Part shown: positions 2,051 through 63,585 of the stretch, one piece after another
How the letters are laid out: each line of letters opens with the position of its first letter
Position numbering within the stretch: position 1 is the first letter of the stretch
Assembly: GCA_021234155.1 (NCBI GenBank)
Contig: JAJEKV010000084.1
Span: 4,677,093 to 4,741,092 of the forward strand
Length of the DNA: 64,000 nt
DNA from: Isoetes taiwanensis
Taxonomy: Eukaryota > Streptophyta > Lycopodiopsida > Isoetales > Isoetaceae
Direction of reading: 5' to 3'
Position numbers and translations under genes: made by a program
The notes under the pieces: model-generated
Told to the model about the DNA's origin: nothing
Databases searched by the model: none
Seen by the model: only the letters and a program-made list of their open reading frames with translations

Positions 2051-3325
2051 CACATCTAAGGATGCACATGATCCTGGAGAATCGCAGACTTTTATGGATT
2101 TCAAGCATCTAATGGTTCCAGACAGTAATGCAGATCCTTAATAAAAGCATGGGAAAAATGTAGAGTCACATGGCTCTTCCAATAAGCAAAGGGTTATCAA
2201 GAATTCCCCCCATCTTAGACCCAGAGCAAAAGAACTGGCCGTCTTTCCCTTTTGTAATGCAAAATTATGAAGGCAAAATCCTTGGAGAAATGTGAAAGCA
2301 AAGGGGCCTTACAGTACTAAGTCACTCTTGCATCACTATTGCAGCATGCAAAAGATGGCGAGAAGCTTATATGTGAATCCTTCTCTTTAAAATCCGAATT
2401 TGTTGTAGCATGCCAAAGACCATGTAGATCTTATATAAATCCTTCCCATTAATAGCCGATTTGACTAAAAATTTTGGCTATAGAGCTTGGTCGTTTTTTC
2501 CTGAAGGAAATTGAAGCTAGAAGCGAAACAGAGCACATACTTAGAAAGCTTTGTTAATCTGCTTGTGGTTTGTGCCTGAGCAATTGTACATAGACCACGG
2601 TTGTTGCTGGGGCTTGGGCGTAGGCACCAGGACTCACGGAGCCACATCTCCACATCTAAGGATGCACATGATCTTGGAGGATCGCAGACTTTTGTGGATC
2701 TCAAACATCCAATGGTCCAGACAATAGTGCCTCTAGCAATTTCGTTGTAGATTTGTCCTCTCGGAGACCTTGAGCAAGAAATGAGCAAGAATCGGCCATC
2801 TATATCATAATCCACCATTTATTCATTTCTACTGCAGATCTTTAATAAAAGCACGGGAAGAATGTAGAACAAAGTGTTCTTTCAATAAGCAAACGATTAT
2901 CAAGAATTCCCCCATCTTAGATCCAGAGCAAAAGAACTGGTCGTCTTTCACTTTTGTAATGCAACATTATGAAGACAAAATCCTTGGAAAAATGTAAAAG
3001 CAAAGGGGCCTTACAGTAGTAACTCTTGCATCACTGTTGCAACATGCAGAAGATAGCGAGGAGCTTATGTGAATCCTTCTCCTTGAACTCCAAATTTGTT
3101 GTAGCATGTCAAAGATTATGTAGACCTCATGTAGATCCTTCCCATTAATAGCCGATTTGACTAAAAATTCTGGCTAAAGAGCTTGGTCGTTTTTTTTTTG
3201 AAGGAAATTGAAGCTAACTGGAAAGCTTTCTTAATCTGCTTGTGGCTTGTGCCTGAGCAATTGTACATAGACCACGGTTGTTATGGGGCTTAGGCGTAGG
3301 CTCCAGAGCTCACAGAGCTCCCTAA
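2051..3325. repeat. Tandem duplication with 600-bp period
   Basis: The sequence beginning CACATCTAAGGATGCACATG at 2051 recurs at 2651, and the two units stay alignable (for example GCCTGAGCAATTGTACATAG near 2574 and 3248). The left arm of the giant inverted repeat begins inside the second unit, at 3216. No convincing coding sequence is seen; the minus-strand frame 2465-2818 is only partly conserved in the second unit. Confidence 0.75.
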
Positions 3326-16401: not shown

Positions 16402-16762
16402 GGGAAAATTACCAAAATACCATTAAAGTTTGTCAAATTTACCAAAATGCCACTAAACCCAGTGGTATTTTGGAAAACTTAGCAATAACGTTTTCTTAAT
16501 GATCTGAATGCAAATGTGCCCTTCAGATGAATTGTAGATTAAGTTGAGATCTTTCCAATAAGCATAAGATCGTCTTGATTGGAGATGAAAATTTCAAGTT
16601 ATAAGCTCTTGAGTTCTTCAGAATTTAAGAAATGAAAAATCTCATAACTTGAGATTGTAGTCTTAGAATTGAATGATCTTATGCTTGTTGGAAAGATCTC
16701 AGCTTAATCTACAATTCATCTGAAGGACACATTTGCATTCAAATCATTAGAAAAATATTATT
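16402..16762 (-). mobile_element. Foldback MITE, left part, left arm
   Basis: Begins GGGAAAATTACCAAAATACC beside the 9-bp target duplication TTTTAATTA (16393-16401). It is interrupted at 16762 by the 10-kb transposon and resumes at 26733. Joined, it measures 443 bp, exactly like the right-arm copy. Confidence 0.85.
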
Positions 16763-17104
16763 GGGTAAAAGCATGCTAGGGTGTCATACATTAGTTCTAA
16801 ATTCATGTACTATTTTGCACTAGAAACCCGTTTTTTATGTAGGAGGCCACGTGCTTGTCGTTATATATTTAAAAAAGGAATATATTTGATTGTTTGTCAT
16901 CATGACATGAAGTGGCCGACGGTTGTTGCGAAATTTTGGGCACAATCACTGGATTCCCTCCGATCCAAGCAAATTCCCTCCAATCCATCCGAAACAAGCA
17001 AATTCCCTCCAATTTACGGTCTAAGAATCTAAAACAAAGAAAAGAATTTCAAATTCTTGCCGGATCTTTGCATGCATATCAGTTTTCATAGTAGTAGTAG
17101 TGGC

Positions 17105-20100
17105 ATGGCACAAGAAAATCAAAGTATGAACAGAATTACTCAGGCTGATGTCCAAAATGAGGACGGTGATACCGAAATCGACAAAGGGAAGCAGAAAATG
17201 GTTGAACAAGATACTCTAAATGACATGCTGAATGAAGTGATAGAGAGTGATACTGTCAACAGTGAGAATGGCATATCATATTTCAGGTACTTCACCAAAA
17301 AAATCAGGAAAAGAGCAGAAAAGGTTGTTGAATGCTTTAGAAATGAAGCCAGTTCTCTATCTCCTGGTGAAAGAGAGGTATTGGTTTCCAGGATCTTGCA
17401 AGATAACAGGCTCTTGGGGTTGTTTAAACCTGTGATTGGGCTACCTTCAGAAGCGGTGGTGAAACATTCATTGTTACAAAATCTCAAAGATGGATTAGAA
17501 GAGGTTAATTCTTCTAATAGCAGTGACAAGTTGGCAGCCAAGCACTCTGTTTTATCCATGATTGTTGGGAAAAATGGGGAATTGAAGCAAAAAGGAGTTG
17601 CTTCAAAAATGTTGAACTGCCATCCTCGAAATTTGTCATACGCTGCAGGCAGAAGAAAGAGAATGAAAATTGCAGGTCCAAGTATATGGGCATTAGCAGG
17701 CAGAAAGAGAAGATCTGATTGTTTGGACGAAGACACAAAGCAATTAGTCATCCAATTTTGGTTAAACAACACCAAGGTTTCACCTAAATACAGGGATGTA
17801 AGAAAGAAAAGGCATCAGGCAATCCAGTTTCTTGATATACCACAGGTATTTCATTCTTTACTGTGTGAAATGCTTCTGATCCCTCATGTATATGTTCATT
17901 TTTATTGGAATTTATAGTATCTTCTTTGTTTTGATGTATGAATGCTTTCTAATGACTGATCTATTATTTATGTATTCACTTTTACTTACTTTTACATATG
18001 CAATCACCTTTGTTGGTTTGCTTACATTTATTGACCATGTATATTACACTAAATCTTCCTTTCTTATTTATGCAGTGACTCCAAAATTCTTAAGCAATGT
18101 ACAGATTAGATATTTGCATAATATTGTATGTTATACATGTCTATAGAGTACATATCTTGTACTCAGACTTTCAGATAGTGCCAATGGACTTCAAGAATCT
18201 ACTCTAGAACATTAATATGCTCTAGGGTACAGTAATGTACCCACACTGCTACTTTATCCTTACACACGTATTTAATGTACATGTGTAATGTATATTCTGT
18301 TGTCCTTATGTATATTGTAAGTACATTCTGAGTACATATGAGTACATATGAGTGCATATGAGTACATCTGAGTATATATTAGTACATTATGAGTACATGT
18401 TAGTACATTTTGACTCCGCATGTACTCAATTGCACATACAAAATCTTTTATTAACTATGATGATTTGAATGCACAGGCTGAGCTGTACCAGAACTTTGTG
18501 GAGCAACACCCAGAGGTAGACATTGGCATCAGATTGTTCGAATACCTCAAACTTGATTGTGTAAGGAAGCTAAAGGAAAGAAACACATGTTGTTGTGTCA
18601 AGCATGAGCAAGAGAGAACTTCAGGAAGGCATTTAATTCTATGAGGGCTAAGCTTCACATCAATTGTAGCTGCAATTGTGAAGTTTGTGCTGCTAACAAA
18701 AATGATGGAATTTGTTAGGCTCACAAGCATACATACTGTAATGTCAGCACTCTATGGAGGAGTATGGTTTGTCCAAAACAGGATAGTGATGAGTGGCACA
18801 AATTAAATTGTATTACAAGTGATTGCAAGAACTGTGGTAAGCAGAACATTAGCTTGTGTCCAAAAGAAACAGAAAATGACATTGAAAGTAAAGTCAATTG
18901 GCAAATATACTCTTATGTGGATGAGAAGTCTAAAAAAGGAGTCTCAAGAAGGCTCAGATTGGTGGAGAAGACAACAAATGCACCTGTAATGCTGGATGCC
19001 ATGTTTGGTCACATGAAGACATTTATCCATCACAACTTTGCAGCTCACTGGCAAAGCAAGGAATTCGTAAGATGTGTTCAAAACCCGAGAGATGATTCAA
19101 AGGATATCGCTGGTTGACTTTGCAGAAAAATTATACATTGAAGCCTTTCAAAGAGGTTCAAATGTAACATTGGAATGCGTACTGTTACTATAATGGTACG
19201 ATTACCATGCTAAAGGTAAATGGCATCTTGAAGAAGACTGTTCACTTGTATATTTCTCGATGACGTAAATCATGATACACATTTTGTACAACATGCATTT
19301 AAGCTTCATCTAAAATGGCTGAAAGAGAATGGTGGATCTCATGTACAGTATCATATTGTGTGGTCTGATGGTTGTGCTGCACAATACAAGTCCAGAAGAA
19401 ATTCATATTTCATTACCAGGTACTATGTTGAATATGTCATTCGTTTACAATGGAACTACTTTGGTTCTGGGCATGGAAAAGGTGAACATGATGGAGAGTC
19501 TCGCCAAGGCCAAGCTGTACTTGCAGCCAACAGCGATTCTTAGAACATGGAACAGAGATTAGAGGTGCACATGATGCTTGTGTTGTCTTGAGGAGCAAGC
19601 AATCTAATGTTAACAAGGTATACTGGGAAGTGAAGGAGTCAGATATTGATAGAACCAATGCATTGGATGTGCAACCTCTTCCTAGTATTCAGAAATTGCA
19701 TGCTATAGCTTCTATAAGTCCAACTGACCCCACCTTAGTAATGGTGAGACCATTATCTTGCTTCTGCAATGCTTGCATTAACTTTGAATGGGATGCTTGT
19801 GAGTCCATTTCATTCTGTGGGAAGTGGCAATTAAAGAAGCTAGTACCCCGAGTAAGTACTCATTGTGAAGTAGAGAATGAGGAAACTGCTGCTTTTGCAA
19901 ATGAAAATGAAGAGCTAGAAGATCTAGTACAGGTAGGTGATATGTTTGCTTCTTTTGCTGCACCAGGAAATGAAGAAAATGTGCCATACTATATCCTTCT
20001 TTGCAAGAAAACAAAATTTGTTTTGCAGGAAAATGTTATTGACGATTACAAAAATTATCACCATACAATTGAAACAAATCATATCCGCTGCAGATTACTA

Positions 20101-20301
20101 TCAAAAAATTGCCCGGTTGTCACCACAAGTATAAGTTATTGGATGACAATTGTACCTGCAGAGTCTGTTATTGGAGCAAAGTTTGCAATGCCAAAAGTAA
20201 ATCATAAGGTGAAGGGTGCTTCTGCAGCTTATGCATTGTCTACTGATGTGCATGAGATGCTACTGGGAAGTCTGCCTGAAATGCTACATGATCTGGAATA
20301 G
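17105..20301 (+). pseudogene. Transposase-like gene of element 1 (DFAENY / WSDG / HGKG family)
   Basis: Exon 1 runs 17105-17845 (acidic N-terminus, then NLKDGLEEVNSS, SDKLAAKHSVLSMIVGK, ending QAIQFLDIPQ); the intron 17846-18476 is GT-AG; exon 2 starts AELYQNFVEQHP. Further blocks are CVRKLKERNTCCCVKHEQ, a Cys cluster near 18,660-18,850, SKKGVSRRLRLV, DFAENYTLKP (about 19,117), WSDGCAAQYKS (about 19,362), FGSGHGKGEHDGES (about 19,463) and CFCNACINFEWD. The spaced Asp residues suggest an RNase H-fold nuclease (inference). Frameshifts near 18,615, 19,090-19,330 and 19,500 plus an in-frame TAG near 18,717 inactivate it. The last frame, 19588-20301, is long and well kept. Confidence 0.7.
17846..18476 (+). 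repeat. GTACA-rich intron of the element 1 transposase
   Basis: The intron is packed with GTACAT/TGTACA motifs, with at least ten between 18,100 and 18,430, including a run of GAGTACATATGA-like units. The intron of the third copy at 61,045-61,700 sits at the identical codon position and is equally dense. Confidence 0.65.
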
Positions 20302-20556
20302 CTTGAACAGATTATATGTTGGACAGATTATATGTTGGAGAGAAATCTGAAAAGAGAAAAGTGCAGGAGTAACATGATTTATATTACATTGTAATTGAGT
20401 ACATCAACTTATTTCAAAACATGTTTCTTGTTATTGATAACTTTACGTAATATATCAACTTTTTTATGCCTAACTATTACATCCTCGTGGTGGCTGAAAT
20501 CTCATAGGTATTGCATCCATTCTCCTAAGATTTCCTGAGCCCATATAATGTTAGGA

Positions 20557-20940
20557 CTAGTTGTGGCAGAGGCCAACGCTACTTCTCTTGCAATTGGAAG
20601 CCCACTCCAGCCCTCGCAAATAAGCAGCTTGACTCGTCAAGATTGGCAACCCATTCCTTCCCAAGGATCGATCATAGATCTTGTGAATTGCCCAAAGTAT
20701 TGTTAGCATCTCATCCCCTCGGTGCTTCGCCTTCAACCGCTCGACTGTTCCCATAATCCAGTGCAGTCGGTAAGGAATCTTGCTTCATACATTAAGCCAC
20801 AAGAGAATGGTACATCCGAACATATTCTCGCTTCAGTCTCTAAAGTAGAAGGTGGTTCATCCGTTCAACCTCTCGCCCCATGTACATGTACAAGTTCCTT
20901 TTGTTCTGTTCAACCTCCTCGCCTCCATGTATAAATTCCT
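20557..20940. other. Spacer between convergent genes of element 1
   Basis: A short minus-strand frame (20557-20754, TVERLKAKHRGDEMLTILWA) may be the decayed end of the minus-strand gene. Nothing else is supportable between 20,302 and 21,112. Confidence 0.25.
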
Positions 20941-21112
20941 CTTCAATTTCATTTTCCTCAACTTCTAATCCAATAACAAAAGTTAAAAATTATTAGCATT
21001 TTAAATCTAAAACTTCCTCAACCTTAAATATTAATAATAGATATAATTTAACAAGTACTCAAAAGAGTTATGAAAGCAAATCAACATCAAGAAAAGTTAC
21101 AAAGAAATGTAT

Positions 21113-21787
21113 TCAGTTTATCAAAGGCATTGTACATAGGGCCTTTATTCTGTTCATATCTTCGCCGTATTCATCCACTATAGTCTTGATGATAATGTCA
21201 CCATATATGTCCCAAGATTCATCCAACTTATGCTCCTTTATGTAATTGGTAAAATCTGGTGCATATTTCAACCCTACCAACCAATCAAATAAGAAGGACA
21301 GATGGTTGTCGCGTTCTATCAAAGGTGTCCATAGTGGCACACAAACATAACTTTCTTTGTTGAAAAGAGCTTTGTGCTTAGACTCAAACACACCACAGAG
21401 TCGACCATTGTATTTAGGATATTCAATGACAATACTATCCATAGGTACTACTTGAGGGGTTACACCAACTGAATTTGTGTAAGGAAGTCCCCAACATCTC
21501 TCTTTTCCATAAACATGTTTAAATTTTGGGATGCCATCTTCATAGAGCTTGTCCAAAATTGATGTTATGATATCTAAGGTAAGAGTTGACCATATGGCCA
21601 AATCCCAATGAAAGGAGGCATATTGAAGCATTGCTTTCATTGTTGGTCCGCAGAGAGAAAACTCCATGTTCTCAGAATTATGGGCTTGTAAGAGGAAATA
21701 TTCATTTCGAGTTCTATAAAAGTAACCCGTAACACCTTGGATCTCAAATATTAGGAGTCCTGTAAGGAAGCAAAATATAATTAACAT
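21113..21787 (-). pseudogene. FCP1/NIF-type HAD-like domain of element 1
   Basis: The 224-codon frame has the layout of plant FCP1-like (NLI-interacting factor) phosphatase domains. It shows LLIFEIQGVTGYFYR at the motif I position, HWDLAIWSTLTLDIITSILD (the IWSS helix block), KERCWGLPYT, and ESKHKALFNKESYVCVPLW at the DDSPxKA position, then an aromatic helix block. The motif I acidic pair appears as E and Q, and the late DD pair as ES, so the usual phosphatase chemistry is not expected. It follows the Ulp1 exons on the same strand and may be a terminal domain of the same protein or a separate gene. Fold assignment is by eye. Confidence 0.4.
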
Positions 21788-22118
21788 ACAGTAGCACTAG
21801 GATTGCAACCATTCATTGATTACATTATCAAGATTACATAAAGCCAAATGGCTTAGTGTTGTTTCCAATAAGAAAAAAGCCAATTGGCCTCATTTGATAA
21901 AGAGTTATGAAAGAAGTTAAGCACTACCATGCTTCTCTTGCGAGGTGCTAGTAGTGCCTGTTTCGATGAGATGGCTCTTATAATTAATCATAGCCTTAAT
22001 GAGCACATGTCTCCTGGACTGTGCATACTCCGCATCAAACCAATATTAAGAGAACTGAAAGAATGAAAACAAATAGTTTTCAGAATTAAATATTATATAA
22101 AAAGCAATTGTGTATATG

Positions 22119-22560
22119 TTATCTCACCATGCTCTTAGCTTGCACCTGGGCATCCACAAAGGCTTGCATATAAGCCATGACATAAAGACCACAAGAGGCC
22201 AGGTCACCTTGTTGTGGAACCTCAGGTCTAATTTCTTTCTGCACTGAATTCTTTACATAAATATCAATCTTACGAGAACTGGAATTAGTCAATGTTGTAA
22301 TGATATCTTTATGAAGCCTGCAATAGAAAATAACATCAGAATTATGAAGCATTACACTGAATTAATAGTGAGTGCACTTACATCATAACCATCCTCGTGT
22401 CGACCGCACATTCTTTAGCGAAGTTCGTAATAAGGATAGCTGGAGAAGACAAAGGGGTGCTGCTACAGTTCTTGGCCTTATCTAAAACAATGATGACTAA
22501 TGCATGGTGCATAGGATCCTCAATCTGGATTGGAATCATAATATACTGGCATTTGCTCAA
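22119..22560 (-). pseudogene. Ulp1-type (C48) cysteine protease exons of element 1
   Basis: Exon 22378-22560 contains YIMIPIQIEDPMHHALVIIV, matching the catalytic-His strand of Ulp1/SENP proteases (W/H-H-x3-V). Exon 22119-22352 contains PEVPQQGDLASCGLYVMAYM, matching the Gln...Cys-Gly catalytic block, with an acceptable intron between. Ulp1 proteases process SUMO; related domains are repeatedly found in plant and fungal DNA transposons. No complete frame is seen, but the catalytic His, Gln and Cys all remain. Confidence 0.65.
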
Positions 22561-22796
22561 TATGATTCCCTGAAGCCCTTTTTGAACTACAAACCAATCC
22601 GCATCGTACCATCAAAGTTGCATCGATGACGCTTTGTTAAAGGTCGCTTACAGAGGCTAAGAAATTCTCTGAAGGGAAGAAAAAAAATGCATCACGCCAT
22701 TTGTCAGGCATAATGCTAATCAGATACCTATTCACAAAGAAAGTGAGGTTAGATGTTCAGTAGTTAACCATAATGCAAAAAAAGAATCTGATCAAG

Positions 22797-24053
22797 TTAC
22801 CTTCCAAATATATCTATATGCCTGTTGGACATGTGCCTGTCTCTGCAAAGACCTTCCACACAATATTTAGTCACCTTGATTAGAGGCTTTTGCTGGAAAG
22901 GGTAGCATGGAACTATTTTCAACAAGCTCTCCGTGTCTCTCAGTAAAAGCGGACTTTGCATTATTGAGAGACAAATGAATTGCAACTACAACAAAATCTT
23001 ACTTACTCTCCTGTGCTATCATCTCCAGATCGAGCACTTTCAGATGATGTTTGGCTTCTAGTCCTGCAGAAGTCATCATAAAATTGTTCAGATATTACAC
23101 TTTAAAAGCTTCAATTAACATAATAAATATTCACCTTTTGGTTGAAGTTGTATTTTGCATGCACTCCTTCCTTTTTCTTGTCTGCTTCTCCTGTTTAACA
23201 ACCTTGGTCTCCGCAACCTTGGTCTCCTCTATGTCATCAACCTTAGTGGCCTCAACCTTTGTTTCCTCAACCTTTGTTTCCTCAACCCTGGTTTCCTCCA
23301 CTGCCACATCATCCTTTTGGATCTCTTGTACCTCCACCATCTCTTCCTCTCCCTTAATATGGCTACTATCCTCTATCTTTTCAATGGTTGCCTGAACAAA
23401 GGCTGCAGAAGATTCACCAATTTCCAACACTTCTGCATAAATTAGTCACCAAAGTTAATCAGTATTGTGAATCCTAATTTTAAGTTAATGGTATACCTGT
23501 TGAATCATCAATAACAAAGATTTGAATTTCCTGCTGAAATGATGGCATTGGCTTAATAGGTTTCCAAATTGGTTTCTCCGAAATTTGTATTGTGAAGAAA
23601 GACCTCGACTCGAACTTTATAATCGTGAAGAAAAACTTGAAGAACCTACAAAAAATGGTGTTTAATAATTGCAAGACACACAAGCAAAAAGAAGATGCAA
23701 CATACCCGCAGATAACTACTCGCCTTCGCTTTAACTTTTCAACCTCTCACGCATAATCCACAAATGTTCGAATCGGTATGCTCGTGGCTATATGGAATTC
23801 CAAGTGACATATGAAGCTCATATGACATGAAAATTAAATTCCAGGGATTGTAAATCAATCAAATGTGATATTTACTTACATGTATCCGAGGACTTCACCG
23901 GGTACCTCAAGCTCTTCCTCAAAAGACTTTATAAGGTTTACGTGTGATGCCCATGTAGAAGTATTTCCCAAATCCTCCCGACCTTCACAAAATCCAACAC
24001 CTTGGAAGAAAGTGTTGTTGGCTTCTGCTGTCATCATCTACAATAAAGAGTAG
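22797..24053 (-). pseudogene. Additional minus-strand exons of element 1, acidic repeat linker
   Basis: Pieces in gene order: an exon with ANNTFFQGVGFCEGREDLGN ending at a GTAAGT donor (about 23,870-24,037); an exon with SEKPIWKPIKPMPSFQQE (about 23,500-23,660); an exon with tandem EETKVEETKVEATKV repeats and a basic KQEKQTRKRK tail (23131-23430); and an exon with KIVPCYPFQQKPLIKVTKYC (22797-22985). These probably link the RING-like N-terminal gene with the Ulp1 domain. The lysine/arginine run looks like a nuclear localisation signal. No domain recognised. Confidence 0.45.
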
Positions 24054-24169
24054 AAAAGACTTGAGATAAGAAAAGGAATATGCATGATTAACAAGACTAC
24101 AATATCATACCCTTTTCTCGGTTTCCTTATGCTACCAAAATCACCGTGCATCACCAAACATTGAGTATA

Positions 24170-24400
24170 TCGATCATCAGCTAAGAAATGTATTCTCAAT
24201 GTACTCTACAAGTACAAATCAATGAAAAAATTAACCGACAATGTACTCCAATGTATCCATCTGATAATGTACTCTGATTTATCATGTAAATGTACCCAAT
24301 GTACTGTTGAAATGTACTGAATGTACTCTTAAATGCATTGTTCTGAAGTACAATCAATGTAACAAAGCTAGCTGATATTGTACTCTGCCCACTGATGAGT
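24170..24400. repeat. GTAC-rich cluster in right half of element 1
   Basis: A cluster of ATGTACTC/TGTACC-type motifs in a non-coding stretch between minus-strand exons, about 2.4 kb from the right terminus. Element 2 has a comparable cluster at 44,630-45,070. Confidence 0.5.
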
Positions 24401-24999
24401 CATGAAGTATTCAATAATAACTCAAAATGTAATTTTGACAGCAACAATAGCAATGTATCTGTCAATTGCTACACTATACAGTTCTCAATAACAAGTAATT
24501 AGCTACCTACATTACTGAGCTGATGAGCACATGAAATTAAAAACTCTCATCTTTAAAAATAAGTAGTCTATTTGGCAGATTATACATGACTGAACCCACA
24601 TTATCCAACTACAAAAACTATGTATCTAAATACGGGTAACTTTTTTATTGACCTACCCAGTTTTTTGACCATCACAGCACATACAAGCACCTTCACCAAA
24701 TAATTTATGTCATCATCATTTGCATCACTAATATGCTAATTATATCCTTTATATAATAGAAAACACTCATGATTTTTTGAAGGGCAATGAAGGGCTATGG
24801 AAGGGCAATGAAGGGCAGTTTGAAGGGCAATGAAGGGCAGTCAGCACCTGTGCAGCACATGTGTCGCCCACATGCTTTTTTGAGTATGTGAATTAAAAAA
24901 CCACCCATACTCAATGTAAATGCAAGCCTAAATCCTTCATGCAAAAAAGAATCTAACTATTAAAATAAGAAAAGAAATTGTAAATTAAATGTACATCTA

Positions 25000-26213
25000 C
25001 TAACCTTTTGTTGCAAGTAGTCCAAGTGCTACAGGCAAATTGCTATTCCATGAGCAGTCAGGATCAACACATGAAATCTTTGTGCTAGCAAGATAGGATA
25101 TACACAGCAGACAATAAGGGTGTCTGCAGGGTGCCAGAACCACTGGATTCACACCAAAAGATTGCTCACAATATGTACATGAAGAAAAAGGTGAACAATA
25201 ACTGATCCGCAAGAATTGTAGACCGGAGAGGAGGGGGTCAAAAGTAAGGATCGAGGAATGTTCTAAAAATTCCCTGAGTTCCATAATTTTTTTGTCTCCT
25301 GCCTCAGCTGAGCTCATATCAACAGATGTAGCTTCAATCTTTGCATCTACATGTTTCAATTCGGTAAGATTCATGTCAATATGTTTCTGGAGCTCAGCGT
25401 GATCCTGCATTCTTGATTCCTTTTGCTCGATAGCATCCTCAACTTTCCATTTTAGGTGCTGAAATCTTATGGCACTTTCAGATGTTTGGTCCAGTTTTGA
25501 TTGTTGATCCTCCAATGCTGCCATTTTTGCTTCAACATTCCTCTCTGCTTCCTGGACCAACCTGATATAAACTGCTCTCTCCCCTTCCTTGTGCTTCAAT
25601 GTATCAAGGATCTCTTGCCTTCTTTCCTTTAACTCAGTTAATTTCTTGCTTAAAGATGTTTTCACAATAGATCTGCTGTCTAAGAAGTTACTGAAAACTT
25701 CTAATTGCTCCTTTGTGTAACTCTTAGCTGAAGTTCTATTTGCATTGCTAGATTTCACTGTCACCACCTCACTAGATAGATCCGAATCCTTTTGCTTCGA
25801 TCTGGCCCATGCTTTGACATCTTCCCAGTCCACTTCTGCACCTTTCAGATGCAATGCAAATGCCCTTGCGAAGTACAGAGGGACATAGTGATTCATAACA
25901 TCTTTTCTTCCAAAAGCAAACTCATACCATTTGCAGAATTCTTCTGTCCACTTCATATCAATTCTGTCATCCTTATAGCCATACCTGCTTGGTGCTTCAT
26001 CACCCCATATCTCTCTTACCATAGCATCATACTGCTCGTAAACATCACAAAAATTCAGTTGTCTGAGCCGTCTTACAGAAAACCTGGTATCATCAGGAGG
26101 TAAAATTTCCCTTTTGGCATGCGAACTTGAAGCTTTCTATTTGCTGGAGGCTTTCCGGTCCTTGGAGACTTTCTTGAACCCTTGATTGGTGTCTTCTTTG
26201 GGGTCTTTGCCAT
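25000..26213 (-). pseudogene. Basic coiled-coil protein with C-terminal RING-like Cys/His cluster (element 1)
   Basis: The ATG at 26211-26213 opens a lysine/proline-rich N-terminus (KTPKKTPIKGSRKSPRTGKP, AT-hook-like). After a frameshift near 26,110 comes the long frame 25000-26022. It has DDRIDMKWTEEFCKWYEFAF, ALHLKGAEVDWEDVKAWARS, about 130 residues of charged coiled coil, then CTYC-x13-CRHPYCLLC-x9-CVDPDC, which fits a RING-type zinc site (C-x2-C, C-x-H-x2-C-x2-C, C-x4-C). A truncated, frameshifted homologue occupies 45,135-46,150 in element 2, so this is a regular component of the family. Role unknown; RING domains usually act as E3 ligases, which would pair logically with a Ulp1 protease. 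Confidence 0.6.
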
Positions 26214-26732
26214 GTTTATAGTACCTGCAAAATGAACAAAGCAACAAATTTGATTTCATAAGATAAATTTGCCCGAAATATTTGAAGATCAGACCGTAAA
26301 CCAAACGCATTGTTTATATTCATGTTAAACCTACATCGATTTAGCTTGAAAAATACCGCTTTTCGATTTTTAATCCATAGAACCAGTTCTATTACTTCTT
26401 GAATTCATTTTCGGACTGAAATCACAGAAAATTAAAACTACAAAATAAAGAAAACAAAACTTACAGGGCAGATCACACGGATATGCAGTGTTCCGAGCCG
26501 GTTCAAACGTTCTTAGCAGTGCCAATTTTCGGAAAACAAACCAATTCTTGCTCCACTCGGTTAGCCAAGAAACAGGGGGAACAAAATGGAGGGAAATTTT
26601 GGTACACTCGAATAATGACATTTTCTTTAATGATGGCAATCAAAAACTTGCTATAATTAAAATACATAACATTATATGTAATGTATTCGAATGGCCCTTT
26701 TTTTTATCACCCTAGCGTGCTTATACCCTATT

Positions 26733-27891: not shown

Positions 27892-28871
27892 TGCCAAATA
27901 ATGTATCAGAGAGAAGCCAAGTTTTACAAATTTCTAGAGCCATTGAAAATGAACAACTAGGATTATTCATAAGAAATATGTGTAAAACCCGAGAAGAGGC
28001 TGAAAGGGTGTTGAGAACAGAATTTGAGCAAAAGAAATTAAAAGAAGGAGAAGATATCACTGAAATACTTTCACCGGGTACAAAGAAGCAAAAGTTACAT
28101 GCTATTATTGCCATGAGAATGGTCATTTTAAAAGCCAATGTCCCAAATTAAAAAAGGAATTTAACTGTTATAATTGTGGAGGCAAGGGGCATGTGGCAGC
28201 CAAATGCTCAACTCCAAAAGACTATAGTCAAGGGAGAGGAAGGGGAAAAGCTCCTAGGGGAGGAAGAGGTGGTGGAAGAAAAGAAGGGAACAGGCCTGCA
28301 GGGTGTTCATATCACCAAGGAAACTGAGGAAGCAAACAAAGAAGAAACTCAAGATGAGAATGAGGTAAATAAATTATTGGTAGCACAAAATGCAAATTCT
28401 GAAACTAATAAAAAGCATGATGTTGTTGTAGTTGATAGTGGAGCTGAGAGATCAGTAGTACAAACTACTGATCTACTTCAAGCCATTGATGCAACTCAAA
28501 AAAGCAAAATTCAAGTTGGAAATGGAGAAGTGCAACTTGCTGAAGGATCTGGATTATTGCAGCAGATAGATTTAGATAAAAATGTTGTTGACATAGAAAA
28601 TGTCTTGTGTGTGCCTACCTTGATCAAAAACTTGATCTCTGTTAGTCAACTAGTTGACGTGGGATACGAGATAAATTTTGATTCCAAAGGATGTAGCATT
28701 TATCTTGATAATATATTGAAGTTTTATGCTAAAAGATTTGGAAATCTTTTTCAAATGGAGGGGATAATTAAAAGGGAAAATTACCAAAATACCACGAAAG
28801 TTTGCCAAAATTACCAAAATGCCACTAAACCCAGTGGTATTTTGGGAAAATTGGCAATAATATTTTTCTAA
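27892..28871 (+). pseudogene. Copia gag-protease segment, right arm
   Basis: Mirror of the left copy: ERSQVLQISRAIENEQLGLF, both zinc knuckles (frameshifted near 28,080-28,180), and the protease DSGA block in frame 28176-28871. The last codons of that frame are MITE sequence. The N-terminus is lost at the palindrome centre. Confidence 0.85.
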
Positions 28872-41875: not shown

Positions 41876-42609
41876 ATCCAGCATATTGTGCTTATACATG
41901 ATGTTACATCTTAGTGTTTCAAATATTAAGTGTAAGGATTGTCATTCTGTAAATTCCATTTGCAGTTCGCCAAATGACTAATCAATTGCTGGAAAGTTTT
42001 GCCGTGGCGATCTTCATAATTATTTTAATGTCTTTTTTTTTATCATCCTTTACTCAAAAAAGAGCTCGAAAAGATCCCCTTGATGACCCAATCCAAATCT
42101 TATATTATGACGCTTTAGTGCAAGCATGTAATGGACCACGCCCTAAAATAGACGGCCCAGATTTTGAGTTAAAGGTTTAATGGTCCAGATGCCTACAAGT
42201 TTCTTTTGTTCTTCTCTCTCTATCGATTTATGGCTTGAGGTTTTTTTCACCTTCAGACTAGCAGCGGGCTTCTAGCAATGAGTTCTCTAGCACTCGGCTA
42301 TGGCTATCAGTGCCTGCAATTTAGGGAGCTCTGTGAGCTCTGGAGCCTACGCCTAAGCCCCATAACAACCGTGGTCTATGTACAATTGCTCAGGCACAAG
42401 CCACAAGCAGATTAAGAAAGATTTCCAGTTGAGAGTCTATTCACAATTTATAATTACATTTCAGATTACACAATTGAGAAAACACATTGATAATTACACA
42501 ATTGTTATTTGCACAGGTGTAAGTGAGCCAAATAAATTAATTTTTTCATTACTTATTGAGTACAAAGAAGCTCGGAGCATGGCTCATACAAAACTGTAAT
42601 TCACAAACA

Positions 42610-43260
42610 AGTCAAAGGGACTATCTACCCTGTGTAGGAACAACTGCTTGTATATTCATCTCGCCTTCTACAATTAATGCCTCCATTAGATGATCCCTCC
42701 GTGACTTGGCATAGGCATCAGTGAACCAACTGGGTGTCATCTGCATGGTGCACAAGTATTAGAGGACTATACCAACAAATAACTAATAGGAAAATAACAT
42801 GTTCTACTTACAAAAATGGAGCTTGGTCGCGGCATCAACCACGGCATCTATGAATTTGTGCATGTAAGCCACAATGTACATGCAAGGGTTGCTGGTACTA
42901 GTTTCTGGCATTTTAGGACGTAACACGAGCATCAAAGTTCTTCCTACCATGGTTTAAGCTGTTGGATCCGAGCATCATGTTATTGATCACAAGCTTATGA
43001 AACCTGCAAAATTGCAATGTGAGAATAAATCAAGCATAAGAAATTGCAATATGAGAATAATCAAATCATAAAACTAAAACAGAAACTCATACTTACTTCT
43101 GGACCACTTTAGCATCGGGTACATAGCCTTTGACAGAGAGAGAGGATCTCAGATACTTGGGGCTAGCTATAGATGGACAAGAGCTTTTCACCGACCAGCA
43201 AGCACAAGTATTGCCAATGCCACATTTGGGCCTTGCGTAATTGAACAAATATGTATTGGC
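42610..43260 (-). pseudogene. Ulp1-type protease remnant of element 2
   Basis: The minus-strand stretch near 42,830-42,950 reads LRPKMPETSTSNPCMYIVAY, aligning with EIRPEVPQQGDLASCGLYVMAY of element 1 (catalytic Cys kept, following Gly lost). The catalytic-His region is recognisable but frameshifted at about 43,190-43,250. Confidence 0.5.
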
Positions 43261-43855
43261 ATCTTGCAATCAAAATGCCATCCAGCCCTTCCTTTATGTT
43301 AGTGTTCTCGCATCCGCCCCTTGTTCTTGAGGGAATTCACAAAATTCTGAAGGTGTCCTGGCCGAACCAGAAAAACTTGTGTTTCCAATCGATGGAAGAT
43401 CGCTACAAAGGTACCGCACACAAATCCGTAATACATATTAATACATAAGATGAGTGACTTAGGGAATGAAATAACATAAATATGTTGAAATGCTAGCCTA
43501 CCTCCCATAGACATCTACCATCTTAGAGGTCAAGTCCAAATTTCCAAAAGAACTCGCCAACATCACTTTGAAAGATAGAGGGTGCAGCTTAGGAGGACAA
43601 ATCCCCTATAAGGAGTGAATGGAACCAACCTTTTCACCGGTTCACTAAACTCGCATAAGGAAACAATAGCATTAGCAAAAGAATATATCTATTGTAATCA
43701 ATTGTATATTACTCACCTTGTAAATTCATCACCGCTTCAAAGATCTTCTCGTGGACTGCTGCACCTTATTTGTTATCACATCAATATTTGCTTGTAGATC
43801 CTCATCCTCTTCCTCTTCCTGCCCCGACTCGTAAGGATCGTGGATCAGCTTTCCT

Positions 43856-44517
43856 TCACGGCCTGTGATCGTGTCCTATGTACAAAAAAAAAATGTGGTT
43901 AATTATCATAAATCTGAGATGTTTAACAAAAATTAGTTCATCTTGGACATACCTCTTTCTAGGTGGTGGTGGCACTTTTTGCCCGAGATTTTCTTTTCTG
44001 AGGACATTTTTTTTTGTTGCCGGAGATTTTGCCTGCTTTTTTCCTCTTGGAGTGCCATCACCAAAGATTCTTTTGCCTCCTCTTTGGAGTGGACTCAACT
44101 ACCAACTCAACTTCCTCTTCCCTGGTATCTCCCGATAAAATCTGATCTGATTCCTTTGTAGCTTTTTTCTCATAACAGTCCGTAATCGAGACCTCGCAGA
44201 TGATGCCGAGACGTAGTTTAATCTTTCTTAGCTTCTCCAATTACTAATTTAGCACTTGGTGATGAAGGAGTTTCTGTTGCAGCAGCCATTGAAGGGTCTG
44301 CACCTGCAACTGCTTTAGCTTTCTCAAGTGCCATCCTCTTAATTTCCTCAACTTCACTTTGCCATGTTCGAGGAGGCACCGCTGCGTATGGTTCTATTAC
44401 CGCATCAGAAATGTCATTGGTGATCCGAGCTGAAGGTTGAGGGTCTACGATTCGGGCCCGCTTATTATGCTCAAGAAAAATCAGAAGAGAGAGTCGATGC
44501 AGATGGCTCAAGAACAT
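43856..44517 (-). pseudogene. Basic linker exons of element 2
   Basis: Three short minus-strand frames rich in Lys/Arg (for example GGKRIFGDGTPRGKKQAKSP and EVEEIKRMALEKAKAVAG) occupy the place of the EETKV/KRK linker in element 1. They probably carry nuclear localisation signals. Not otherwise recognised. Confidence 0.4.
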
Positions 44518-44629
44518 CAGCCATTAAAGCTGCTTCTGGGATAGGAACAGCCTCATCTGCAAACAAACAAATGATCTAAATTTCAATAGACATAAAAGAA
44601 CATGAAAACAGAACTAATGAGAAATATCC

Positions 44630-45070
44630 GGGTACATTCTCGCCAAGCATGTACATTTCATGTACATAAAATGTACCAAATGTAATGTGAACTACATTTA
44701 ACTATAGCCAAATGTACATGTACATGTCCCTCAATGTACATAGAGGTACATCAATGTACCCAGATGTACCCAGATGTACCCAGGTATCAAGTTAGGGAAT
44801 GTAGATCTATGCCCAAAAAAAAGCACATATATGTAAAAAATGCACATACTTATGAATCCATCTACAGATGCACTCTAAAGATAAATGCATGTACATCTAT
44901 TTGCGTGATGTAGACTCCATTAGAGACATGTACAACCGATACAACCGCAGTCCAAGCTCAAAAATAAAAGCATCAATAAACAAGCAAATATATGCCTATG
45001 TACCTCTCAAGCATACGATGTACACTAAAAGTTATACATGTACAAGGAATAGCAATGCACTGAAAGCCAT
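44630..45070. repeat. GTACA-rich cluster of element 2
   Basis: Dense TGTACAT and TGTACC motifs, including a CAGATGTACC tandem near 44,760-44,785. Same relative location as 24,170-24,400 in element 1. Confidence 0.6.
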
Positions 45071-45134
45071 ACATGTAGAACTATGCAGATTACAATAACA
45101 AATATGAATTAAGAGAAATGTAAGTTTAAATTAG

Positions 45135-46150
45135 TTGAGAGCAATGCATACCTTTCACAGCAGGGAAACCAAGCTGAATTCAATGCCCTCATCCCGTGAT
45201 GCAACCTTTTATGCAATTGCCTTTTCATGGACCGTGGATAACACAAGCGTAAGAGGCAATAAGCATCTCTCGCATGGAGCTAGCAGCAACAAACCAGCTT
45301 TTGCCAAAGCCTTGGCCACAACAGTACATGAACCTAATGTGATGAACTGCTTCTATAGAAGTAGCTCCTACTGTGGTGGGGCCTCGCACGAACAATAGGT
45401 CCTGCTCTCCCCATGAAATCCAAAATTTGTGAATGCCTTTGCTGAACCAATTCAATGCAATTAAGTTTTTCCTTTGCTTGTTCAATTGAGATTTCATGCC
45501 TTTCAATTTCTTTTTAGTTGCTTCCCTCGCAAAACCAATGTCTAGCTTAGAAGAGTGCTGCTCTTTATCATGTCTACTCATAACCAAGTCTTCCAACTTG
45601 TACTTCAACACCAAGATAACTTGATTTCCAAAGCAGATCCCGGGACAATTTGTCAAATTCCCTGTTTTGTCTCATCTATTTTCTCGCAGATCTGGCTGCA
45701 GATCTTCGAATAGCATATCCTTTCTACCCTCAATCCGCTTGATGACCTTCAATGCATCCCTCCTTTTTTCTTCCAAAGGCTTCTAATTCATTCAATAGGT
45801 TAGTTTTCCCTCCAACCCATGCTTAAGTAACTGCTTTATTGTGTCAACATCTGATCTAGAATAACCTGTGGCTCTAATATTCTCACCGCAATACAATGTC
45901 CTGCTTTGATAGTTGAGGATTTACCCGCTGTAGGGTCCTCTCAGAACGCCCGAAATGAGGGTTTTGGCAAGATCTTTGGCGGTCCTAGCCACGCCCATCC
46001 AATCAACAAGCCGCCCCTTCAAGTGAAGAGCAAATGCTCGCAAAATAGGTAGAAATATAATGGTTTGTAACCCTGCTTCTTGCCATAAACCAATTCATAA
46101 TATTAAAAAATCATCTTTCCATGCGCTTCGATTCTCCCTTCCTTGAATCC
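45135..46150 (-). pseudogene. RING/coiled-coil gene remnant of element 2
   Basis: A minus-strand frame near 46,000 reads LHLKGRLVDWMGVARTAK, aligning with LHLKGAEVDWEDVKAWAR of element 1. The coiled-coil part (45,400-45,660) and a frameshifted Cys cluster (YCCGQGFGK, LLLLAPCERC) follow. Several stops and frameshifts. Confidence 0.5.
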
Positions 46151-46617
46151 TCGCCTGCTTTTTGAGCTTCACCACATACCTCGCTCATAACCATCTCTAG
46201 GTTGGGTATGTGGGCCTCTCGTGATGTTTATCACGGAGGTCTTTGGCTTGGATCACCTCGTAACCCAAACATAAACTCCTTGAGGTAAAAATCCACCGCC
46301 GGAAGCACCGGCTTCTTGCTTACCGCTGTGGTGATGAGCAAGCACTCATCCGGGGTGTTTTGGGGCCATAGCTAGATGAAGAATTCGTGGATCGAATTCA
46401 AGCAGAAGAAGGCATGGGATAGTGAACGAGAGGCAAACCAAGAAAGAATTTGGGAAAGAATTTCAAAATCCGATAATTGCGGGTTCAGAGTAGTGGATAG
46501 CCATCATGGCAGTTACTAGCGGATCATGATGACAGTTATTCCAAAAATGTGCATTTTGTACATATGTATATGTACAAAAAGGACTACATTTATAGACACC
46601 CTTTCATGCTTTTACCC

Positions 46618-60113: not shown

Positions 60114-60430
60114 GGGTAAAAGCATGAAAGGGTGTACGTACATCGTACTGAATTGAAGGACGAATTTGTGCTTTTTTTGGGTACATTTTAGATGTACATC
60201 AAGATACTATGGTTTGTCGTTTTGTGTCAGATATGCAATGATTGCAAGATCATCCCTGACATTCCCCCCGAAATTCTTGGTTAACCACCGAACCACCGAA
60301 CCAATTCGAATGGATCCGTCCCTCCCTTTCCGAAATCCCCCCCTTTCACAGGACGAACACCGAACGAATTCCAGAAGCAAACACATGCCAATTGAATCTA
60401 CAAGAAATACAAATCAATTTCAATTTGTTC

Positions 60431-63400
60431 ATGGAGGGTGAGAATTCCAATGGAAGTGATGGTTCTAAGCGCAAGTATGCCGACATTGGCCAGTGTTATG
60501 CCACAAAACAAATAAAGCGTGTTGACAGGTCGGTGGATTGCATCCTCGATTCTTGGCAAACGCCGTCCCGATCAAAGATTAGTTTTTGTGATCGTTTGTT
60601 GCAAGATGACGCTTTTTTTTCGTTTTCGAACCTGTAATTGGAAATCCTTCCGGGTTATTGTTATGAAATCAATGATCGAAACTTGAAAGATGGACTTCAA
60701 GAAGTAAAGTCTGCTAATAGCAAAGATAAATTGGCTGCAAAACATTCACTGTTATCAATGATTGTTGGAAAAAAAGGAGATATAAACAAGAATGTTTCTT
60801 CAAAATTGCTAAAGATACAGCCAAGAAATTTATCCAAAGCTGCAGCAAGAAGGAAGATAATGTCATTAAGTGGAGCAAATGTATGGGCTTTGGCAGGAAG
60901 GATGCCAAGATCAAATAGAATCGATGATTCAATCAAATGTCGTGTTTAAGTGAATTTTGGCTTGACAATACCAAAGTTTCACCAAAGGTTAGAGATGTCA
61001 TGAAGAGGAGAACACAAGCAATACAATACCTTGATATCTCACAGGTTTGCTCTTGTAATTGAATCAATTCAATTTTGGAGATTATGTTTTCTTCCAAAAT
61101 TCTTTCATGACTTTCTTCTGTACATTCTAGTTCTGTTCCGAGTGACCTGTTAATGAATACACATGGTTTTCATGAAATGTATTGCATTTTACATTGTTTA
61201 CATTTATACATTGTTTACATAGTAGCAGAAATCTTGCAGTGATGTGCTATTAGGTACTTTTTAGATGTACATCCATTAACACTTACATGTCCATGCAGCT
61301 GCATTTACATGTACTTGAATATCAAAATTACATCATTTTACATTTTAGTGTACTTTCAGGTAATGAAGCCAAACAAATCAGACATATGTACATTAGTTGT
61401 ACTAATATTGTAACATTAATGTGATGTACTAATATTGGAACATTAATTAGATGTACATTAGATGTACACTGGATGTACATTGGATGTACAGTAATAGATC
61501 AGTGGAACTGTTGGCTGTACATTAGATGTACTGATGTACATTAGATGTACTACAGTAACAGATCAGTGGAACTGTTGGATGGACATTTTATGTACATAGA
61601 ACATACATTAATTGTACAATAGTATAGTTCAATACTCTTTTGGCATCTGGTTGCGGACATCATTTTGCTGACATGGTCTTTAATGCTTTTGTTATTGCAG
61701 TCTGAGCTTTATCAACAGTTTGTATATTAGAATCCTGATACCAAAATTCGCCTTCGACAGTTCGAGTATCTGAAACCTGATTGCATAAGGAAATTGAAGG
61801 AGAGAAACACATGTTGTTGTGTCAAACATGAGCAAGCAGATCTGTACAGAAAGGCCTTCAATGATATGAGGAGATCCCTACATGTTAATTGCACTTGCTG
61901 CTGCAGTGTCTGTGCATCCCAGCAAAACAATGGAGTATGTCAAGCAAACAAGAAGACTTTTGATAATGTTAGTATCTTGTGGAGGTCAACAGTTTGCGAG
62001 AAATATGTGACGGATGAATGGCATAAACTAAAATGCATCAAAGGCGAATGTGATGAATGTGGAGTGAAGAAATTCGACATCTGTCCAAACGAGGAAGATG
62101 GAATTCAGAATGTGGACTGGCAAGTATATGCATATGTCAATGAGCCATCCAAAAAAGGTACATCCAGAAGGCTTAGATTAGTTGATCAGAATGACAAAGC
62201 ATCTGTTTTGTTAAAGAACATGAAAAATCAGCTTGCTAAGTTTATAGATCATAACTTTACAGCACACTGGCAGAGCAAACAGTTTAAAAGATGTGTTGAG
62301 AAACTCCTGGATAATAGTGTGTTGTCTGTTGTTGACTTTGCAGAGAACTACACATTGAAACCAGGGACAGAAGTGCAATCCAAGCATTGGAATCCTGATC
62401 AAATTAGTATTTTGGTCCATATTTCAATGATGAAAATAGAAGGTAAGCTTAAAAAAATAGTGCATTTCTATGTTTCAGATGACAGAAAGCATGACACTCA
62501 TTTTGTGCAACATGGTTTTAAATTACATTTGGGGTGGCTTAAGAATAATGGAGGTGGACACATAAACCTTCATTATGTGTGGTCGGATGGTTGTGCATCT
62601 CAATTCAAATCTGCACGGGCATAGTATGAAATCTGTAGATACCATGTTGAAAATAAAATTCGAGTGATATGGAATTTCTTTGGATCTGGCCATGGGAAAG
62701 GCACACATGATGGCGAGGCTGGTATAGCAAAGTTGTGGCTTGAGAGAGCGAGGAGAAAACAAAATGGCATGCCGGTGTGGTCTGAAAAGCTTGACAATGC
62801 GGTTTTAAGGGCCAAGGAATCGGATTGTGAAAGGGTGTTTTGGGAGGTTGGAAAAATAGATGTGAACAGGCAGCAAGCATTCAATTGCAAGACTTTACAC
62901 AGTACTCGGCCAGATACATTACGTGTCAACTATAAACCCAATGAGATCCAACAAAGTTGCTATCTCGGACCACTCTCGTGCTTTTGTGATGCTTGCATTA
63001 ACTTCAATTGGTTGAATTGTGAGAACATTAAATATTGTGGAGAATGGTCTCTAAAAAGTTTGGAGCCCACAGATCATATTGCCTCTCGTGTTGAAGCTGA
63101 AAATGATGTGGATGTTTTGTATGCAGAGGACAAGGCTGGTTTAGATGACACTGTAGCTGTTTTAGATGTATTTGTGTCTTTTGCAGCACCAGACAATGTG
63201 GAAGGTGTTTCATACTATGTTCTCATGTGCACCAGGGAAAAGCATGCATTGGAAGAAGATTCAATTGATGACTATGGAAATGAATACTCTGCTGGCACTA
63301 GTGTCATTGAAGAACAATATTATGAACTAATCCCAGGCTGCCACAATAAGTATAAACTGCTTCCTACTAAGAATGTTTTGGTACCTGCAGAATCTGTGAT

Positions 63401-63530
63401 TGGGGTTCGAATCCCATTCAAGAAAGTAAAACACAAGCTGAAGGGGGCAAGCACAGCATTTCACTTGCCAGATGAAGTCCATGAGACATTGTTATCACAA
63501 CTTCCAGCAATTGTAGATGACATGGACTAA
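60431..63530 (+). pseudogene. Transposase-like gene of element 3 (best preserved copy)
   Basis: ATG at 60431. Exon 1 runs to 61044 (NLKDGLQEVKSANSKDKLAA ... QAIQYLDISQ); the intron 61045-61700 is GT-AG; exon 2 begins SELYQQF. Then come LKERNTCCCVKHEQ, a Cys cluster CTCCCSVCA...CDECG, SKKGTSRRLRLVD, DFAENYTLKPGTEVQSKHW (about 62,336), WSDGCASQFKS (about 62,581), FGSGHGKGTHDGEAG (about 62,683-62,725), and CFCDACINFNW. The exon 2 frames 61794-62624 and 62664-63530 are long and clean. Lesions are frameshifts around the T8 run near 60,615 and near 60,945, a TAG at 61728-61730 and a TAG at 62622-62624. Compared with element 1, few changes separate it from an open frame. Confidence 0.75.
61045..61700 (+). 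repeat. GTACA-rich intron of the element 3 transposase
   Basis: At least ten TGTACA motifs, several as ATTAGATGTAC units in tandem near 61,440-61,560. Same intron position as 17846-18476. Confidence 0.65.
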
Positions 63531-63585
63531 GTCAGATCTGTAGTACTTTCCAGAAATATTGTAATACTTTGTTATAAGAACTGAT

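What the first reader, a model, noticed from the sequence alone, without database searches (positions are those of the whole stretch)
16763..26728. Unassigned ~10-kb DNA transposon family coding for a DFAENY/WSDG/HGKG transposase plus Ulp1, HAD-like and RING-like proteins
Three related elements (16,763-26,728; 42,431-46,617; 60,114-end) share termini GGGTAAAAGCATG and a common gene order. The transposase-like protein has DFAENY, about 80 residues later WSDGCA-Q-K, about 40 later HGKG-HDGE, and several Cys clusters. That spacing suggests an RNase H-fold DDE/DDD nuclease. The motifs recall an uncharacterised transposase-like family I remember from animal genomes, but I cannot name a plant superfamily. 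The opposing gene set combines a SUMO-type protease, a RING-like protein and a HAD-like domain.
Basis: partly seen in the sequence, partly recalled or inferred. Interest (0 to 1): 0.85.

Follow-up and report, generated by a model that had tools for sequence, protein, structure and literature searches.

The report
Five-gene DNA transposon family in quillwort
A large family of cut-and-paste jumping genes in a plant genome (very probably the quillwort Isoetes taiwanensis) carries, besides its transposase, a conserved set of four extra genes including a SUMO-type protease and a RING-like protein, which hints that some transposons carry tools to manipulate their host's protein-control machinery.

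Summary
16,763-26,728 is a complete insertion: 21-bp terminal inverted repeats, TATT duplication, and the empty site in the other arm of a 38-kb palindrome in the window. The genome holds 3,243 exact termini against 0 for the reversed pattern; 23 of 25 paired copies examined have perfect 4-bp duplications of varied sequence. The transposase (about 850 aa, two exons) keeps D(FAENY), D(WSDG) and D/E(HDGE) in 8 of 8 sequences and matches no searched family. Three subfamilies share one layout: transposase on one strand; a small GW gene, a HAD-like gene, a Ulp1 protease (PF02902, 8e-11) and a coiled-coil RING-like gene on the other. Between subfamilies dN/dS, where calculable, is 0.06-0.35 for transposase, HAD, Ulp1 and RING exons, against 0.97 for a recent pair: these extra genes look selected, not hitchhiking. 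DDD plus 4-bp duplication fits Sola, but no Sola sequence was available; AlphaFold models were too poor to test the fold. The copies at 42,439 and 60,114 are halves only.

The parts
16763..26728 (+). Element A, complete insertion (9,966 bp)
   Evidence: TIRs, TATT duplication, empty site in the other palindrome arm
16759..16762 (.). Target site duplication TATT, left
26729..26732 (.). Target site duplication TATT, right
16763..16783 (+). Left terminal inverted repeat GGGTAAAAGCATGCTAGGGTG
26708..26728 (-). Right terminal inverted repeat GGGTATAAGCACGCTAGGGTG (2 mismatches to the left one)
28855..28859 (.). Empty target site in the other palindrome arm
17105..17845 (+). Transposase exon 1 of element A (247 codons); start and splice site inferred from the sequence (ATG, GT) and homology
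   Evidence: sequence; ORF; dN/dS 0.19 for A-type against L042
18477..20301 (+). Transposase exon 2 of element A (Cys clusters, DFAENY region, WSDG, HGKGxHDGE); frameshifted copy
20547..20612 (-). Remnant of the small GWxGLPIARE gene
   Evidence: tblastx against L042; matches in 11 of 12 other copies or slices (the query came from one of them)
21113..21796 (-). HAD-like (NIF family) ORF; motif I reads FEIQG, motif IV FESKHK, so probably not a canonical phosphatase
22125..22949 (-). Ulp1 (C48) protease exons, partly decayed in this copy; HHALVI and PQQGDLASCGLYVM
   Evidence: (L039 relative)
25000..26136 (-). Coiled-coil plus C-terminal RING-like ORF (Cys/His cluster at 25015-25188)
42439..46617 (+). 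Copy C: right half of an element, right TIR ending at 46617, weak remnants of Ulp1 and RING genes
60114..63584 (+). Copy B: left half of an element, left TIR at 60114
61701..63530 (+). Transposase exon 2 of copy B (one in-frame TAG at 62622-62624)

Best explanation
A multi-subfamily cut-and-paste (TIR) DNA transposon family of about 9-10 kb, active fairly recently. Shown: defined TIRs, 4-bp target duplications without a fixed sequence, an empty site, a conserved transposase with invariant acidic positions, short non-autonomous derivatives with the same ends, and a conserved opposite-strand module (GW gene, HAD-like, Ulp1, coiled-coil RING-like). Inferred: the transposase binds the TIRs (perhaps through its Cys-rich part), cuts with a DDD (D202, D286, D327 of P0004) RNase H-type active site, and joins the ends to 4-bp-staggered target cuts; the short elements move in trans. 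The co-conserved Ulp1, RING-like and HAD-like proteins most likely act on SUMO-, ubiquitin- or phosphorylation-controlled host factors, or on the transposase itself, to relieve silencing or stabilise the transposase. Most likely a Sola-like element with an accessory module that I did not find described.
For: Empty site and TATT duplication. 3,243 exact TIRs versus 0 in the control; 243 more of the CACG variant, control 0. Of the 100 TIR places listed, 66 form convergent pairs: 28 of 252-342 bp and 5 of 8.9-9.3 kb. 4-bp duplications in 23 of 25 fetched pairs, plus GTGG for C1063, ATGT for L039 and TCAA for L040. D202, D286, D327 and E329 invariant in 8 of 8 transposase sequences. Same gene order in three subfamilies. 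55 of 129 HAD loci have a RING-gene match on the same strand, upstream, at 1-12 kb (39 of the 55 at 3.2-4.6 kb), against about 0.2 pairs expected by chance within 15 kb. dN/dS between subfamilies: transposase exon 2 0.11-0.15, exon 1 0.19, HAD 0.32-0.35, two Ulp1 exons 0.06 and 0.15, RING end 0.11; recent pair L041/L006 0.97. Sola: DDD, 4-bp duplications, mostly 2-9 kb, in Physcomitrella (PMC10741241, passage).
Against: No fold evidence: AlphaFold mean pLDDT 30.3 and 44.4. No transposase family match in Pfam, NCBIfam, PHROGs or PDB sequences. RING below Pfam's cut-off. HAD motifs depart from DxD and motif IV, so enzyme activity is doubtful. Synonymous sites are near or at saturation: 9 of 15 transposase pairs and three accessory regions gave no ratio, and some finite ones rest on dS above 2. 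The GW gene was not tested for selection. Sola membership was not tested. One of five long paired copies (L038) carries no element gene. Two of 25 copies lack a duplication. Nine HAD-RING pairs within 15 kb have another arrangement, and only 8 of 150 listed transposase loci have a listed HAD gene in place (3 in another arrangement), 5 of 150 a RING gene (3 other); the lists are capped and sample different subfamilies.
Confidence: 0.82

Rival explanations
1. It is an ordinary member of the known Sola superfamily (probably the Sola1 group), only not recognised by the first reader; accessory genes are local captures.
For: Sola is described by a DDD transposase and 4-bp duplications, mostly 2-9 kb, in moss (PMC10741241, passage; PMC9033089, table passage); a Sola1 of a choanoflagellate has 4 in the duplication column as I read its table row (PMC6875170, passage); Sola is listed in the fern Ceratopteris (PMC6890710, table passage). 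A brown-algal Sola1 of 21.5 kb also carries an opposite-strand accessory gene (PMC12477816, passages).
Against: No Sola sequence could be compared (Bao 2009 and Yuan and Wessler 2011 not held). Accessory genes conserved in order in three subfamilies with low dN/dS are more than passing captures.
Confidence: 0.5
2. A new superfamily of eukaryotic DDD/E transposons, distinct from the Repbase superfamilies.
For: No match in Pfam, NCBIfam, PHROGs or PDB sequences. Duplication length and target choice exclude most plant superfamilies.
Against: Pfam covers the Repbase superfamilies incompletely (recalled). Sola fits the features that could be checked.
Confidence: 0.3
3. A Ulp1-bearing MULE or CACTA element, the usual plant carriers of Ulp1 (recalled).
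For: Ulp1 genes are known in such plant elements (recalled).
Against: 4-bp duplications instead of 7-12 bp (MULE; PMC10741241) or 3 bp (CACTA, recalled); termini GGG, not CACTA; no MULE or CACTA transposase match in Pfam.
Confidence: 0.02
4. The palindrome and the gene cluster are assembly artefacts or a chance cluster of host genes.
For: The window palindrome (arms about 97.5 percent identical) could be an assembly fold-back.
Against: TIR pairs, duplications and gene order recur on many other contigs.
Confidence: 0.01

Closest known systems
Sola superfamily (Bao et al. 2009, not held; described in PMC10741241, passage seen)
   Same: DDD-type transposase and 4-bp target duplications, 2-9 kb or longer, reported from seed-free plants
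   Different: Sequence homology untested here; the Sola passages seen mention no Ulp1, HAD or RING gene
Sola1-1_Ec32 of Ectocarpus (PMC12477816, passages seen)
   Same: Large Sola1 with an accessory gene on the strand opposite to the transposase
   Different: The accessory gene is ParB plus DNA methyltransferase, not Ulp1/HAD/RING
Plant MULEs and other elements with Ulp1 genes (recalled); Ginger elements (PMC2836005, search listing only: 21 occurrences of Ulp1)
   Same: A Ulp1 protease in an element with a DD(D/E) transposase
   Different: Other transposase, other duplication length or integrase type, other termini (partly recalled)
Kolobok (PMC9587614, passages seen)
   Same: Purine-rich termini (5'-RR), 4-bp duplications
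   Different: Kolobok is TTAA-specific; here 1 of 23 duplications is TTAA, and the C/DxxH signature is not conserved
Animal uncharacterised proteins with DFAENY, SDG and HGK..CDG motifs (recalled, no call)
   Same: Same three motifs and similar spacing, as recalled
   Different: Not retrieved, so not tested

Membership tests
Cut-and-paste TIR DNA transposon | Terminal inverted repeats with target site duplication | tested here: met
   23 of 25 paired copies with a perfect 4-bp duplication; element A with empty site
Cut-and-paste TIR DNA transposon | RNase H-fold DDD/E transposase | tested here: inconclusive
   D202, D286, D327 and E329 invariant in 8 of 8; AlphaFold mean pLDDT 30.3 and 44.4
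Sola | 4-bp target site duplications | tested here: met
   definition from PMC10741241
Sola | DDD catalytic triad | tested here: inconclusive
   the third residue may be D327 or E329; both invariant here; no activity or fold data
Sola | Significant sequence similarity to Sola1/2/3 transposases | not testable with these tools
   no Sola sequences at hand; Bao 2009 and Yuan and Wessler 2011 not held
MULE | 7-12-bp target site duplications | tested here: not met
   4 bp; definition
Tc1/mariner | TA duplications | tested here: not met
   4 bp of varied sequence; definition
Kolobok / piggyBac | TTAA-specific duplications | tested here: not met
   1 of 23 duplications is TTAA; definition
[quoted passage not shown]
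   not conserved: CRYH in 3 of 8 (P0004, P0007, P0008), TRYH in 4, CRYN in 1; definition
Ulp1 / C48 protease (accessory gene) | Match to PF02902 with conserved His and QxxxxxCG | tested here: met
   E 8.1e-11, above the gathering score, on L039 exons joined by hand; E 6.6e-7 on the single L039 exon; the usual Asp reads Asn (motif recalled)
HAD / NIF phosphatase (accessory gene) | Canonical DxD and DD motif IV (recalled) | tested here: not met
   FEIQG/FESKHK in A and FDLQG/TDLPFK in L039, FDING/DDSAYK in L006; fold family supported (1.8e-11)
RING E3 (accessory gene) | RING profile above cut-off | tested here: not met
   best E 0.012, 16 bits against a cut-off of 25.2; the Cys/His cluster is 69 percent identical between A and L039

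The most novel reading that the evidence does not exclude
A new plant transposon superfamily that carries a purpose-built anti-silencing kit: a SUMO protease, a RING-type ligase and an FCP1/NIF-like pseudo-phosphatase that together reprogramme SUMO/ubiquitin marks and transcription at transposon loci, kept by selection through at least three diverging subfamilies.
Probability: 0.2. Interest if true: 0.8.

Novelty: new variant of a known kind. Interest (0 to 1): 0.55.

Why it matters
DNA transposons with a Ulp1 gene are known (recalled; Ginger in a search listing), but what such genes do is, to my knowledge, an open question. Here a Ulp1 gene sits in a fixed module with a RING-like, a HAD-like and a fourth gene, in the same order in subfamilies whose transposases are only about 52-71 percent identical, with low dN/dS in the exons that could be measured. 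That makes the question testable in one system: does the module relieve host silencing or stabilise the transposase? The family is also abundant (over 3,000 exact termini), has many short derivatives, and would help repeat annotation of lycophytes; in the passages seen of the Isoetes taiwanensis paper transposable elements are 37.08 percent and LTR elements 15.72 percent of the assembly (PMC8566536).

Tried and rejected
Pfam (two calls on the transposase, E up to 1 and up to 10), NCBIfam, PHROGs and PADLOC: for the transposase only a few matches with E between 0.003 and 0.14 to unrelated families, or none; on the RING-gene protein PADLOC gave JetC and LmuB at E 0.0007 and 0.003 over the coiled coil, taken as coiled-coil noise. 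PDB profile search: none. Relatives in viral contigs, prokaryote genomes, plasmids and phages: none. The contig scans looked only for near-exact stretches of two peptides each, so distant relatives there are not excluded. AlphaFold on the copy-B exon-2 protein alone and on its core with window-only rows gave models too poor for a fold search, so none was run. I did not hand G000 proteins to the structure tool because its stated rule names only window sequences and loci of other tools.

Papers: search for the literal motif DFAENY, 0 papers; searches for Ulp1/RING/TIR transposons, for Sola and its groups and for Sola with lycophytes or Isoetes showed, in their listings and in the passages I opened, no description of this element. 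This does not show absence from the literature: subscription papers and Repbase are not held.

The chance reading of the 13-mer within the window (alone is weak) was rejected.
Full report
What is there. The window is G000:C1094:4,677,093-4,741,092 of a 1,658,258,908-base assembly in 1,110 contigs.

Element A (16,763-26,728) has 21-bp TIRs (2 mismatches) and TATT duplications. It lies in one arm of an inverted duplication (3,594-42,040; the two long aligned blocks are 97.4 and 97.6 percent identical). The other arm reads straight through the site with one TATT, so this is a clean insertion after the duplication or into one of two separately inherited copies; precise loss from the other arm is less likely but not excluded. 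The flanks lie among Copia-like retrotransposon ORFs (my reading of the translations).

Genome-wide. GGGTAAAAGCATGNNAGGGTG has 1,608 + 1,635 exact places and 0 for the reversed control; GGGTAAAAGCACGNNAGGGTG has 122 + 121 and 0. Of the 100 places listed, 28 convergent pairs span 252-342 bp and 5 span 8.9-9.3 kb; one further pair spans 20.6 kb. I fetched 20 of the 28 short and all 5 long pairs: 18 of 20 and 5 of 5 have a perfect 4-bp duplication, 21 different sequences among 23; L014 and L017 have none. Three further copies with readable flanks show GTGG (C1063), ATGT (L039) and TCAA (L040); L041 shares its flank with L039, so it may be a duplicate of the same insertion and is not counted. Seventeen of the 20 short elements are 320-342 bp and 94.2 percent identical on average (88.8-99.7); one of them, L018, matches the first 105 and last 218 bp of the 8.9-kb L038 at 97 and 99 percent. 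L038 has no detectable transposase or accessory gene and its translations look like low-complexity filler. So short elements share their ends with long ones and presumably move in trans (inference).

Transposase. Exon 1 (247 codons in A), an intron of about 630 bp with GT/AG ends, and exon 2 of about 607 codons, both exons open in L005. Among the matches listed (151 reported, 150 scored of 7,916 first-look candidates), 8 have open frames of 550 aa or more without a stop in the match. Eight exon-2 sequences from four transposase lineages (A-type P0001/P0005, P0002, P0003/P0006, B-type P0004/P0007/P0008; two rows partial; 53-89 percent identical to copy B) keep D202, D286, D327 and E329 (numbering of P0004) and many Cys and His residues. 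D286 is 84 positions after D202 and D327 is 41 after D286; the hydrophobic runs before the first two Asp look like a DDD/E core by eye, which is inference. AlphaFold could not test it. No library names it.

Accessory module. In opposite orientation, from the transposase outward: a small gene with GWxGLPIARE; a HAD-like gene; a Ulp1 protease; a coiled-coil gene with a C-terminal RING-like cluster. tblastn over 12 long copies or slices plus the three window copies: all five genes in the same order and orientation in 7 of 12 (E35, E37, E1063, L039, L040, L041, L042; L039 and L041 perhaps one insertion event; four queries came from these slices); E34 lacks HAD and Ulp1 matches; E36 lacks HAD; in E1034 Ulp1 is displaced and RING inverted, apparently by rearrangement; E1028 has only transposase and GW within its 11-kb slice; E38 (= L038) has none. 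Window A has transposase, HAD, Ulp1 and RING, with a GW remnant seen only by tblastx; copies B and C are halves.

From the genome lists (second fragments of a locus left out or merged: 150 transposase, 129 HAD, 100 RING loci), 55 of 129 HAD loci have a RING-gene match on the same strand, upstream, at 1-12 kb, 39 of them at 3.2-4.6 kb; 9 further pairs within 15 kb have another arrangement. 8 of 150 transposase loci have a HAD gene downstream on the opposite strand (seven at 2.3-2.5 kb; 3 pairs otherwise arranged) and 5 of 150 a RING gene (3 otherwise). About 0.2-0.4 pairs within 15 kb are expected by chance for each comparison. The lists are capped and rank by similarity to different subfamilies, which lowers the transposase counts.

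Ulp1: joined L039 exons match Peptidase_C48 at 8.1e-11, with HHALVI and PQQQDSVSCGLYVM; the usual Asp reads Asn (motif recalled). PDB: weak hits to SENP7 and Ulp2 (E 0.05-0.43). HAD: an ORF beside another transposase copy (L006:2-664) matches NIF at 1.8e-11 and is related to the L039 HAD (4e-10). Motif I is FDING, FDLQG or FEIQG and motif IV DDSAYK, TDLPFK or FESKHK in L006, L039 and A, so the window version is probably not an active phosphatase. RING: best E 0.012, below Pfam's cut-off.

Selection. dN/dS is 0.15 for transposase exon 2 of A-type against L041 or L006, 0.12 and 0.11 for two more distant pairs, 0.12 for L008 against L010; 9 of 15 transposase pairs gave no ratio because synonymous sites were saturated. 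Exon 1: 0.19. HAD: 0.32-0.35. Ulp1 exons: 0.06 (dS 4.2) and 0.15. RING end: 0.11 (dS 2.1). Three further regions (Ulp1 H exon, coil plus RING, N-terminal part of the RING gene) gave no ratio for the same reason, though the proportion of nonsynonymous change was far below that of synonymous change. The recent pair L041/L006 gives 0.97, as expected for copies decaying after insertion. The GW gene was not tested. So HAD, Ulp1 and RING-like genes appear to have been kept along with the transposase; the values are approximate.

Corrections to the finding. Copy C (42,439-46,617) is a right half and copy B (60,114-63,584) a left half.

How it most likely works. TIR recognition, DDD-type cleavage, 4-bp staggered integration: duplications and empty site shown, chemistry inferred. 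The accessory proteins probably modulate SUMO/ubiquitin states or transcription to favour transposition: inferred only from domains and conservation.

What it is. Duplication length excludes MULE and Tc1/mariner (definitions) and hAT and CACTA (recalled); lack of TTAA preference excludes Kolobok and piggyBac. Sola (DDD, 4-bp, moss) fits, and Sola has been listed in a fern (PMC6890710), but sequence membership could not be tested. I therefore call it Sola-like in behaviour, membership open: about 0.5 for Sola, about 0.3 for an unnamed superfamily. The most novel reading, a new superfamily with an anti-silencing kit, is not excluded.

Noticed in passing
window 3594-42040: A 38-kb near-perfect palindrome (arms about 14.1 kb without the element, about 97.5 percent identical, spacer about 0.2 kb) containing Copia-like retrotransposon sequence; could be a true inverted duplication or an assembly fold-back.
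   Followed up: partly
window 63585-64000: Sequence after 63,584 is not part of the element as known from five other copies; similarity stops sharply, so copy B is truncated or interrupted there.
   Followed up: partly
L006:2-664 and 1057-1578: HAD gene with nearly intact motifs and a GW-gene relative on the same strand as, and upstream of, a transposase copy: the reverse of the usual orientation, perhaps a neighbouring or rearranged element.
   Followed up: partly
L038 (G000:C22:249976-258971): An 8.9-kb element with perfect TIRs and duplication ATGG but no element gene found; its ends match a 322-bp MITE at 97-99 percent.
   Followed up: partly
window 59771-60058: A long TTC/CATTTC-rich imperfect repeat ends about 55 bp before the left end of copy B.
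   Followed up: no
window 760-3195 and 56290-59124: Families of long direct repeats, start-to-start spacing mostly 0.3-0.8 kb (up to 2.7 kb in the second stretch), the second in a G+C-richer region.
   Followed up: no
window 1-64000: No tRNA gene and no Rfam family at gathering threshold (ARAGORN run with the bacterial code).
   Followed up: yes
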